A program made the position numbers and the translations under genes. The notes beneath the pieces are model-generated. The model saw only the letters and a list, made by a program, of their open reading frames with translations, had not been told where the DNA came from and searched no databases. This document shows positions 25,667 to 27,724 of a DNA stretch of 45,654 bases, piece after piece (positions within the stretch are counted from its first letter, which is position 1; every line of letters begins with the position of its first letter). This DNA comes from a virus: positions 1 through 45,654 of IMG/VR virus record IMGVR_UViG_3300037224_000022; one strand, 5' to 3'.

Positions 25667-25854
25667 CAGAGTTTCCTCGCTTCGGCTGCTCGCACTTGCC
25701 GCTTGCTCACTGAAACGACATAGCCCCAAGCGTCACGGATTGTCACTACCCGCGCACCGATAGCGAGAACCACGCTCGGGCGAAACGTTGCGTCGTAGGC
25801 AACTCGATCGCCCACCTTGATGACTCGGCCGTTTTTCAATTTCATCTGTTTCAT
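25666..25854 (-). CDS. Small KOW/SH3-like protein
   Basis: 62 residues, ATG 25854 after AGGAGGGAACG. LKNGRVIKVGDRVAYDATFRPSVVLAIGARVVTIRDAWGYVVSVSKRQVRAAE looks like a short beta-barrel with a KOW-type turn. A longer reading to 25971 is false because it runs through the tmRNA. It lies 25 bases after the tmRNA 3' end on the same strand. Confidence 0.6.
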   Translation of the reverse strand: MKQMKLKNGRVIKVGDRVAYDATFRPSVVLAIGARVVTIRDAWGYVVSVSKRQVRAAEARKL

Positions 25855-25879
25855 CGTTCCCTCCTTCGGCGTTTGAAAT

Positions 25880-26228
25880 TGGAGTAGGGGGGAATCGAAC
25901 CCCCGTCCGCGAACGCTATTGCCAATCACTTTCCTAACAGCTTTTTTGGGGGCGTGTGTGCCCTCCACCATCTTGTCTTTCCAAGATGCCAGTTCAGTCT
26001 TTCCCGAACCCGCCAGCTCTGTCCGAGCAGGATCAGCGATTGGTGCTGGTTACGCTGAAACCAGGGCCGACTCGGAGAGGAACGCTTCAATTTCAACGAT
26101 CCCCCGAGCTGCCTCGTTTGCTACTTCGTCTTTCGCATTCACATTGTCCAATTCAGGACTTGATGCGGTAGGCCGCAACCCGCTGTAAGTAACTGCCACA
26201 TTACGCCACGTCGAAACCGATCTACCCC
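25880..26228 (-). ncRNA. ssrA: Phage-encoded transfer-messenger RNA (tmRNA)
   Basis: 349 bases with the canonical parts. The 5' end GGGGTAG (26228-26222) pairs with CTACTCC (25887-25881), including the G:U third pair that AlaRS recognises. TCGGTTTCGACG follows as the D-loop-like element. T arm GGGGG-TTCGATT-CCCCC, discriminator A at 25880, CCA not encoded. CAGTTACTT (26195-26187) pairs with AAGTGATTG (25931-25923) as the long closing helix. The tag frame starts at GCA 26121 after AAGTA, reads ANEAARG...EIEAFLSESALVSA and stops at TAA 26050, in the loop of a CTGGTT/AACCAG hairpin. Downstream CATCTTG/CAAGATG and GGGC/GCCC hairpins fit the later pseudoknot region. tmRNA rescues stalled ribosomes and tags the product; phage copies, known in mycobacteriophages with similarly long tags, may supplement the host. 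Confidence 0.95.
26050..26121 (-). other. tmRNA proteolysis-tag reading frame
   Basis: 23 codons plus TAA. Resume codon GCA (Ala), then AAC GAG as in many bacterial tags (E. coli GCA AAC GAC). The end is LVSA instead of the usual LAA. Confidence 0.85.
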
Positions 26229-26239
26229 GAGTGACAATT

Positions 26240-26355
26240 GAGAGACGAACCGAGAGGAGTCGAACCTCTCGCCCGGCGTCAGCCTCGAACCCTCTGAATG
26301 GGCGTCCATGGACTCGGCCTTAGCATCCGGCGTCTCAGCCTTGTGCTCGTCTCTC
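26240..26355 (-). ncRNA. Aberrant tRNA-like element upstream of the tmRNA
   Basis: 116 bases. The ends form a perfect 9-bp stem GAGAGACGA/TCGTCTCTC, 11 bp if one G:U and one C:G pair are added. A classical T arm, GAGAGG-TTCGACT-CCTCTC, precedes the 3' strand. The 5' half has a D-loop-like AAGGCTGA and a TGCTAA segment like the anticodon loop of tRNA-Ser(GCU), but the anticodon stem is poor and about 45 bases separate it from the T arm. A second loop ATTCAGA could offer a UCA anticodon. It may be a decayed or unusual class II tRNA, or a structured RNA co-processed with the tmRNA 11 bases downstream. Confidence 0.45.
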
Positions 26356-26373
26356 AATCTTGCTGCCATCGTA

Positions 26374-27147
26374 CTACTTGCTCTTCTTCTTGGCAACTGC
26401 TTTCTTCGGCTTCGCGGTGCCACGCTTAGCGGCCTTCTTAGCCGCTACGGGCTCGGCCTTGCTCTTGCTGCCCTTCGGCCGTCCACGCTTCGCAGCGGGC
26501 TTGCTGGCCGCTTTCTTCGCCTTGCTGACTGTGTTCTTCCTGTTGGTGCTCGCCTCGTGCTGGCCGGTGCCAGTAACGAAGTCGAATTTCACGCGGGAGA
26601 TGTTCCAGCGCAAGAGAGCCTCGGCCTCAGCCTTCGTGTACTTCTTGCCGGTTGTAGGGCTCGTCTTGAAAAGCTGCTGCGCGTCGGGCTTCAGTAGCTC
26701 GAAGCACTTGTCAACGTTGCCCCTGAACTTGCGGACAGCCTTGAGAATGGTCTGCCGGTTGCCCCGCTGTCCACCACTCCACTCGGCCTTCCAGTCGATC
26801 GATTTGTCATCGATCAGATTACGACCGCTCGGGCCGTCTGCCTTCGGCTTTGTCACCTTGACAGCTTTCTTGACGTTCTTGCTTCCAGCCGGTCGTCCGC
26901 GCTTCTTGGCAACCTTCTCCGCCTTCGCGGGAGCGCTCTTCTTCGCAGTCTTCTTCGCGGACGACTTCTTGCTAACTGACTTCGCAGGCGCGGCTGACTT
27001 CTTCGCGGCACCCTTCTTCTTGGCAGGAGCCGCCTTCTCGCTCTTGCCGTGGTTCTTGATTGCGTCCTGAAGCTCGGACGCGCTCATTGCCTTGTAGCCC
27101 TCGATGCCAAGCTGCTTCGCCTTGGCCCGGATTTCAAGTGTTCCCAT
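26374..27147 (-). CDS. Histone-H1-like DNA-binding protein with AT hooks
   Basis: 257 residues. Residues 1-35 resemble a Rho-N/SAP-type helical domain (IRAKAKQLGIEGYKAMSASELQDAI). Residues 36-95 and 200-257 are Lys/Ala/Pro-rich tails with AT-hook motifs KKRGRPAGSK and KRGRPKGSK. A central folded domain (residues 105-195, IDWKAEWSGGQRGNRQTILKAVRKFRGNVDKCFELL...) lies between the tails. Such proteins bind AT-rich DNA and may compact or silence DNA. The gene has its own strong promoter, GGAGG 8 bases before ATG 27147, and is followed by the tRNA-like element and tmRNA, which are probably on the same transcript. Confidence 0.8.
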   Translation of the reverse strand: MGTLEIRAKAKQLGIEGYKAMSASELQDAIKNHGKSEKAAPAKKKGAAKKSAAPAKSVSKKSSAKKTAKKSAPAKAEKVAKKRGRPAGSKNVKKAVKVTKPKADGPSGRNLIDDKSIDWKAEWSGGQRGNRQTILKAVRKFRGNVDKCFELLKPDAQQLFKTSPTTGKKYTKAEAEALLRWNISRVKFDFVTGTGQHEASTNRKNTVSKAKKAASKPAAKRGRPKGSKSKAEPVAAKKAAKRGTAKPKKAVAKKKSK

Positions 27148-27199: not shown

Positions 27200-27228
27200 A
27201 TGATACCGCCTTTTCATTCCATTGTCAA
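27200..27228 (-). promoter_or_regulatory. Strong sigma-70-type promoter
   Basis: TTGACA at 27228-27223, 17-base spacer, TATCAT at 27205-27200. It reads into the H1-like gene 50 bases away and probably on through the tRNA-like element and tmRNA. Confidence 0.7.
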
Positions 27229-27593
27229 ACACGAAACTGAAAATGGCATTCGATCGCGGCCGTTGCTGCCTTCTTGTCGATCTCGGTCACTACGAGCTTG
27301 ATCTGTTCGACCCGACCGCTATCCAACTCAGGCGCAAGCAGCTCTGCCGAAGCCCTGCGAATGTAACCCATGTGAATACCTTTGAGCGATGCTGCTTTGT
27401 CATCGGCGACCACAACCATGACCGCATTCGGATCAAATTTATTGTCCGGCTCTCGTTCGAGCCTTACGTGAAACGGGCATACTCGCATGAGCTTGTCTCT
27501 GCCGGTAGCCGTAACGTGATGCTCTAGCCCCACGGCAGTCAATTCGATGTCCCATTTCTTTCCTACCTTCTTCTGTGCTGTCTTGCGCGCCAT
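27225..27593 (-). CDS. HIRAN-domain protein
   Basis: 122 residues from ATG 27593. The segment FHVRLEREPDNKFDPNAVMVVVADDKAASLKGIHMGYIRRASAELLAPELDSG has the HIRAN pattern (E-x-x-N-x-x-D-x-N-A ... G-Y-I-x-x). HIRAN domains bind single-stranded 3' DNA ends and are usually fused to SF2 helicases such as HLTF; here the domain stands alone, with an SF2 helicase four genes upstream in the same operon. The N-terminus is a short Lys-rich tail. The start overlaps the stop of the preceding gene. Confidence 0.75.
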   Translation of the reverse strand: MARKTAQKKVGKKWDIELTAVGLEHHVTATGRDKLMRVCPFHVRLEREPDNKFDPNAVMVVVADDKAASLKGIHMGYIRRASAELLAPELDSGRVEQIKLVVTEIDKKAATAAIECHFQFRV

Positions 27594-27724
27594 TACCGCT
27601 TCCCTTCCCGGCACCACGCAATTGTCAAGCAACGCTCGCGCCCGCCGAAGAACGAATAATAAACCATGCGGCAACCGCAACATAGATGACGATACCGCGC
27701 CCTAATTGGAATGAACTTTTTCAT
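27593..27724 (-). CDS. 43-residue Cys-rich protein
   Basis: ATG 27724 with GGAGGG 4 bases upstream and overlapping the previous stop. HLCCGCRMVYYSFFGGRERCLTIAWCREGKR carries four or five cysteines in CCxC...C...C spacing, like a small zinc ribbon. Unknown role. Confidence 0.6.
   Translation of the reverse strand: MKKFIPIRARYRHLCCGCRMVYYSFFGGRERCLTIAWCREGKR

What the first reader, a model, noticed from the sequence alone, without database searches (positions are those of the whole stretch)
25880..26228. Complete phage-encoded tmRNA
All canonical elements are visible on the minus strand: GGGGTAG/CTACTCC acceptor stem with the G3:U alanine identity pair, TTCGACG element, T arm, 9-bp closing helix 255 bases apart, GCA resume codon, tag frame and stop codon in a hairpin loop. 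tmRNA genes in phages are known in a few groups (for example mycobacteriophages) but are uncommon. It is co-oriented with an H1-like gene behind a strong promoter, which suggests deliberate, probably high, expression.
Basis: partly seen in the sequence, partly recalled or inferred. Interest (0 to 1): 0.88.

Follow-up and report, generated by a model that had tools for sequence, protein, structure and literature searches.

The report
Phage tmRNA with conserved unusual tag
A ~62-kb uncultured phage carries a complete but highly divergent ribosome-rescue RNA (tmRNA) that standard software misses; it should tag stalled proteins with a long peptide ending ALVSA that is conserved in tmRNAs of Mycobacterium and Gordonia phages and lacks the usual bacterial degradation signal.

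Summary
A full-length one-piece tmRNA lies on the minus strand at 26228-25880 (Rfam RF00023, 57.6 bits against a cut-off of 47, E=4e-20). ARAGORN misses it. It has a G3:U70 acceptor stem, UUCGAC element, T arm and a 9-bp P2 helix exactly 255 nt apart. A second record of the same virus (~61.8 kb circle) carries it 100% identical; no tRNA, SmpB gene or integrase was found. Related phages (DNA polymerase 50-62% identical) lack it; in two of them a small ORF occupies the slot.

The frame reads AKDEVANEAARGIVEIEAFLSESALVSA*. It is homologous to tmRNA tags of Mycobacterium phages Bxz1/ET08 and Phrappuccino, Gordonia phages GodonK, BlueNGold and Sixama, and uncultured contig L423 (core EIEA[FY]...ALV). 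Core codons differ from ours almost only at third positions, so the peptide is under selection. In IMG/VR the pattern E[I/V]EA[F/Y]x4-ALVxA-stop occurs in three records, all tmRNAs.

Most likely it is a working trans-translation RNA using host SmpB and alanyl-tRNA synthetase, replacing the host LAA degron with a phage-specific tag. The fate of tagged proteins is unknown.

The parts
25880..26228 (-). tmRNA (ssrA-like) gene, 349 nt including discriminator A73; CCA not encoded
   Evidence: Rfam RF00023 57.6 bits, full model length; fold z -4.13
26222..26228 (-). 5' strand of acceptor stem GGGGUAG (pairs with 25887-25881; G3:U70 alanine identity)
   Evidence: pair probability 0.98-1.00
25881..25887 (-). 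3' strand of acceptor stem CUACUCC; discriminator A at 25880
25888..25904 (-). T arm GGGGG-UUCGAUU-CCCCC
   Evidence: pair probability 0.92; aligned to RF00023
26182..26195 (-). P2 helix 5' strand CAGUUACUU + ACAGC
   Evidence: pair probability 0.82-0.94
25923..25941 (-). P2 helix 3' strand GCUGU (bulge UAGGA) AAGUGAUUG
26050..26136 (-). tag reading frame AKDEVANEAARGIVEIEAFLSESALVSA* (resume GCG 26136; same-frame alternative resume GCA 26121; stop UAA 26052-26050)
   Evidence: homology to phage tmRNA tags with third-position codon changes
26033..26064 (-). probable pseudoknot (PK2 position): CUGGUU/AACCAG with UCAGCG/CGCUGA, enclosing the stop codon
   Evidence: two compatible 6-bp stems, -6.0 and -7.8 kcal/mol; inferred
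26374..27147 (-). lysine-rich histone H1-like protein gene upstream of the tmRNA (weak Pfam Rho_N match only)
   Evidence: homologues in G001 and G002
27200..27228 (-). sigma-70-type promoter TTGACA-17-TATCAT
   Evidence: 11 of 12 matches
25716..25855 (-). small ORF directly downstream of the tmRNA (approximate limits); homologue follows the H1-like gene in G001
   Evidence: tblastn, sequence
26235..26360 (-). hairpin-forming spacer between H1-like gene and tmRNA; 14-bp outer stem with an inner T-arm-like CGAGAGG-UUCGACU-CCUCUCG
   Evidence: fold z -2.35; no tRNA model hit

Best explanation
This is a functional, horizontally acquired one-piece tmRNA of an actinobacteriophage-like virus. Made during infection, probably with the H1-like gene, it is processed, given CCA and charged with alanine by the host alanyl-tRNA synthetase (G3:U70). 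With host SmpB and EF-Tu it enters ribosomes stalled on truncated mRNAs, and translation resumes on its 23-28-codon frame and stops at UAA. Stalled proteins then carry a phage tag ending ...EIEAFLSESALVSA instead of the bacterial ...LAA degron. Shown here: structure, frame, peptide-level conservation of the tag, no phage SmpB, presence only in this lineage among its relatives. Inferred: charging, SmpB use, expression, rescue. The tag's effect is hypothesis: I favour that it gives tagged proteins a phage-chosen fate (a different protease or none) rather than standard ClpXP disposal.
For: Full-length RF00023 match. P1, T arm and P2 supported by pair probabilities; P2 keeps pairing with a sequence (ACAGC/GCUGU) different from the Rfam consensus CAUGC/GCAUG. 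Tag homology: EIEAF..SALVSA shared with Phrappuccino, AKD...EIEAFF..ALVDA in L423, ATDTDATVTDAEIEAFFAEEAAALV in ET08/Bxz1, GodonK, BlueNGold, Sixama. Shuffles of our tag reaching the observed score: 0/20000 for Phrappuccino and L423, 11/20000 for GodonK; EIEAF codons differ at codon positions 1/2/3 in 0/0/3-5 places (0/1/4 against GodonK's EIEAY). Complete IMG/VR scan for E[I/V]EA[F/Y]x4-ALVxA-stop: three records, all tmRNAs. Identical gene in a second record of the virus. Host-supplied partners: no SmpB.
Against: Low covariance score (57.6 bits; phage relatives searched here mostly 82-127) and ARAGORN failure. Position -4 of the favoured GCG resume codon is G, whereas A is nearly universal and the E. 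coli A86G mutant is impaired (PMC2481249). The classical PK1 pseudoknot is not evident. The shuffle test is weak against BlueNGold (1732/20000). No expression data; host unknown. Nothing here tests what happens to tagged proteins.
Confidence: 0.82

Rival explanations
1. Decoy: the RNA is charged and binds SmpB but mainly blocks host trans-translation by titrating SmpB, like the near-TLD-only tmRNA of mycobacteriophage DS6A.
For: Degenerate PK1 region and -4 G at the favoured resume codon; a DS6A-like molecule strongly inhibits tmRNA (PMC4131195).
Against: A decoy needs no tag, yet the frame is intact and selected at the amino-acid level; Sixama has an in-frame 18-nt expansion within its tag.
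Confidence: 0.08
2. Decaying passenger: a tmRNA captured from a larger tRNA-rich actinophage, now losing function.
For: Absent from all relatives of this virus; low score; a T-arm-like remnant lies just upstream, where Bxz1-like phages have a tRNA-Arg.
Against: All acceptor, T-arm and P2 pairs intact; frame open for at least 28 codons with the conserved end; the other tag-family members are too diverged for recent capture.
Confidence: 0.07
3. attP or mis-excision remnant of a host tmRNA used as integration site.
For: tmRNA genes are known integration sites (PMC3029335).
Against: Complete gene with 5' domain, not a 3' fragment; no tyrosine or serine integrase hit; phage-type tag, not a bacterial one.
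Confidence: 0.02
4. Ordinary degradation tag: the altered tag is still degraded efficiently by host proteases, so the RNA simply raises rescue capacity. This shares the trans-translation mechanism of the best explanation and differs only in the fate of tagged proteins.
For: Other phages carry tmRNAs with ordinary LAA-like tags (107 of 134 distinct ARAGORN tags end in AA), so extra capacity alone can be selected.
Against: Strong conservation of a specific non-LAA peptide across phage genera suggests a dedicated role.
Confidence: 0.3

Closest known systems
Bixzunavirus (mycobacteriophage Bxz1/ET08, Nappy) tmRNA
   Same: One-piece phage tmRNA; tag core EIEAFF..E.A.LV; CCA not encoded; no LAA
   Different: Those phages are ~155 kb with ~30 tRNAs and the tmRNA lies in a tRNA array; here no tRNA was found in a ~62-kb phage; DNA too diverged for a BLAST hit; tag extended by SA
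Mycobacterium phage Phrappuccino tmRNA (unannotated in its record, found here)
   Same: 28-residue tag ending EIEAF-x3-SALVSA, identical end
   Different: Acceptor GGGCCUG; T loop degenerate (no GGTTCGA); only the tag and core elements align
Uncultured contig L423 (IMGVR 3300020061_000027) tmRNA
   Same: Tag AKDVDATVTDAEIEAFFNEEALVDA: starts AKD and ends ALVxA like ours
   Different: Bxz1-like body and tRNA array; 3-residue shorter tag
Gordonia phages GodonK, BlueNGold/Forza, Sixama tmRNAs
   Same: EIEA[FY]AN...ALV tags
   Different: End in ALV without SA; different bodies; GodonK lacks an evident canonical 5' half
Host-type actinobacterial tmRNA (from general knowledge, tag ADSNQRDYALAA)
   Same: Overall fold and mechanism
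   Different: Short tag ending LAA read by ClpXP

Membership tests
tmRNA (RF00023, one-piece) | Full-length covariance-model match above gathering score | tested here: met
   57.6 vs 47 bits, positions 1-374
tmRNA (RF00023, one-piece) | Acceptor stem with G3:U70 and A73 | tested here: met
   sequence
tmRNA (RF00023, one-piece) | UUCGAC D-loop element, T arm, long P2 helix joining 5' and 3' parts | tested here: met
tmRNA (RF00023, one-piece) | Open tag frame with resume codon and stop | tested here: met
   frame selected at peptide level; exact resume codon unresolved (GCG 26136 or GCA 26121)
tmRNA (RF00023, one-piece) | PK1 upstream of the tag and conserved A at -4 | tested here: inconclusive
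   two hairpins instead of a clear PK1; -4 is G for GCG, A for GCA
tmRNA (RF00023, one-piece) | Alanine charging, SmpB binding, tagging | not testable with these tools
   needs biochemistry. (ARAGORN detection, a heuristic and not a defining feature, fails here and also for Phrappuccino and GodonK.)
EIEA[FY]...ALV tag group of actinophage tmRNAs (grouping proposed here) | Tag core homologous with synonymous codon changes | tested here: met
Permuted two-piece tmRNA (RF04321) | 3' domain precedes 5' domain | tested here: not met
   order is 5' acceptor-tag-3' acceptor; RF04321 only 14.9 bits against 47
TLD-only decoy tmRNA (DS6A type) | No mRNA-like domain | tested here: not met
   28-codon tag and further stems present

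The most novel reading that the evidence does not exclude
Diverse actinobacteriophages share a tmRNA lineage whose conserved EIEA[FY]...ALV tag is a phage-specific fate signal that replaces the host LAA degron, so that during infection the phage decides what happens to every rescued protein (stabilised, or sent to another host or phage partner).
Probability: 0.35. Interest if true: 0.78.

Novelty: new member of a known kind. Interest (0 to 1): 0.52.

Why it matters
Phage tmRNAs are usually explained as extra ribosome rescue. A tag conserved among several phage genera at the peptide level, but without LAA, says the message matters too and gives a simple test of whether phages rewrite the fate of rescued proteins. 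It also shows that routine annotation misses members: ARAGORN skips this one, Phrappuccino's and GodonK's, so phage tmRNA counts are underestimates. The tag points to a Mycobacterium/Gordonia-like host for an otherwise unassigned virus.

Tried and rejected
blastn of the locus against phages found only T-arm matches, and tblastn of the tag found nothing at E<=10, so the link was found through the Bxz1-group tag, a BLAST of that tmRNA and degenerate-codon pattern scans. The G001/G002 intergenic region was searched for a divergent tmRNA: none, a small ORF is there instead. SmpB absent. Integrases absent. The upstream element as a tRNA: rejected by Rfam and ARAGORN; only a forced low-threshold ARAGORN run gives contrived tRNAs with large introns. 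Bacterial origin through the 5' pattern gave mostly Rhizobiales sites and no actinobacterium, and was not pursued. Similar long acidic tags (L174, L282, L299) do not score above shuffles against ours and are not claimed as homologues. Bxz1 and Wildcat records were not held; ET08 stood in for Bxz1.

Full report
Observation. The window is an IMG/VR virus record of 45,654 bp. Rfam finds one family above threshold in it: tmRNA RF00023 at 26228-25877 minus, full model length, 57.6 bits, E 4e-20. ARAGORN finds nothing. The fold is 4.1 sd better than dinucleotide shuffles. The inner P2 helix is ACAGC/GCUGU where the Rfam consensus has CAUGC/GCAUG, that is, pairing is kept with different bases.

Virus. 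A second record, G003 (61,917 bp), carries the locus at 100% identity. Its ends overlap by 123 nt and the window maps across that junction, so the genome is a ~61.8-kb circle or permuted molecule. No tRNA was found in it, no SmpB, no integrase. Relatives G001 and G002 (terminase 67%, DNA polymerase 59-61% identical) and the more distant G005 and G006 (DNA polymerase 55% and 50%) have no tmRNA hit. In G001 and G002 the stretch after the H1-like gene holds a small ORF, hydrophobic at its N-terminus, instead. The tmRNA was therefore gained in, or uniquely kept by, this lineage.

Tag. The frame open from GCG 26136 to UAA 26052-26050 reads AKDEVANEAARGIVEIEAFLSESALVSA. The ET08/Bxz1-group tag is ATDTDATVTDAEIEAFFAEEAAALV. 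Following that tmRNA by BLAST led to Phrappuccino, whose tmRNA is unannotated and missed by ARAGORN; read by hand its tag is ADNNDALVSDADFAEIEAFANDSALVSA. GodonK, also missed, gives AEADVVVSDSDIAEIEAYANEAALV; BlueNGold is annotated as EEANAPVVTEADFAEIEAFANSEAAALV; Sixama has the same with an in-frame 18-nt tandem expansion. A degenerate-codon scan found uncultured L423, AKDVDATVTDAEIEAFFNEEALVDA, confirmed by ARAGORN. Our tag scores above all of 20,000 shuffles against Phrappuccino and L423, only in the correct frame, and the EIEAF codons differ from each relative almost only at third positions. A complete scan of IMG/VR for E[I/V]EA[F/Y]x4-ALVxA-stop returned three records, Phrappuccino, L423 and this virus, all tmRNAs. 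The peptide is what is conserved, so the RNA is, or recently was, translated as a tag.

Resume codon. GCG (26136) lies at tmRNA nt 93, close to nt 96-101 in the relatives, 9 nt after the last hairpin, and gives the AKD start of L423; but it has G at -4. Both are in the same frame. I favour GCG, weakly.

Stop and pseudoknot. CUGGUU/AACCAG and UCAGCG/CGCUGA can form an H-type pseudoknot with the stop codon at their junction; the UCAGCG strand is the SA codons themselves. So the SA extension may be shaped by RNA structure as well as by protein. This is inferred; the thermodynamic fold prefers only one of the two stems.

Mechanism. By the established tmRNA pathway, the host alanyl-tRNA synthetase, CCA enzyme, EF-Tu and SmpB would make this RNA work. 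Wildcat's tmRNA is that phage's most highly expressed lytic gene (PMC7474061), which makes high expression plausible. The promoter TTGACA-17-TATCAT at 27228 would drive the H1-like gene and the tmRNA together. The tag lacks the LAA end. In a survey of tags called by ARAGORN in the fetched loci, 107 of 134 distinct tags end in AA (median 11 residues) and 27 do not (median 21), the latter including some obvious false calls. What the conserved end does is not known. I found no paper in the library that describes the motif, though individual tags are in GenBank records and a tmRNA database lists several of these phages (PMC4131195).

Status. Membership in tmRNA is established by sequence, structure and comparative evidence; activity is not. 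The kind (phage tmRNA) is known. The new points are this member, its presence in a small phage without detected tRNAs, the unannotated members in Phrappuccino, GodonK and Sixama, and the recognition that their tags form one conserved non-LAA group.

Noticed in passing
26235-26360 (minus): Spacer between H1-like gene and tmRNA forms a 14-bp stem (ATTGAGAGACGAGC/GTTCGTCTCTCAAT) around a T-arm-like CGAGAGG-TTCGACT-CCTCTCG; its 3' part resembles the T arm of the tRNA-Arg(CCT) that sits just upstream of the tmRNA in Bxz1-like phages. Not a tRNA by Rfam or ARAGORN; an ORF from ATG ~26369 also runs through it into the tmRNA.
   Followed up: partly
L335 700-1110 (Mycobacterium phage Phrappuccino MK937592): Unannotated tmRNA overlapping annotated gene 9; tag ADNNDALVSDADFAEIEAFANDSALVSA; its T loop lacks the usual TTCGA sequence.
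   Followed up: partly
L336 380-771 (Gordonia phage GodonK): Unannotated tmRNA 3' part and tag, but no canonical 5' half is evident; it seems fused to or replaced by a tRNA-like stretch annotated as tRNA-His.
   Followed up: partly
L460 ~520-970 (Gordonia phage Sixama): Unannotated tmRNA whose tag carries an in-frame tandem repeat (EAFANSEAFANSEAAALV).
   Followed up: partly
L141 and L142 1420-1811 (Pseudomonas phages PaMx31 and SM1): Unannotated tmRNA (permuted and betaproteobacterial Rfam models match); ARAGORN tag ATEGVYLELL, not LAA-ended.
   Followed up: partly
L168, L185, L234: Phage tmRNAs with the same first 19 nt as ours (GGGGTAGATCGGTTTCGAC) but a different conserved long tag, GT(L/F)ITESALRNK...F(V/I)R(I/V)(S/P)VAA.
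   Followed up: no
L174, L282, L299: Acidic long tags ending LI/LV (ADSYSCDWDAEFAALLEEEGCLI, ADFSADTESDALWAEFDAREGVLV, AEDNTEAPESDALWAEFDACESVLV), a possible second non-LAA tag group.
   Followed up: partly
27225-27683 (minus): HIRAN-domain protein (Pfam PF08797, E 1.6e-9) upstream of the H1-like gene.
   Followed up: no
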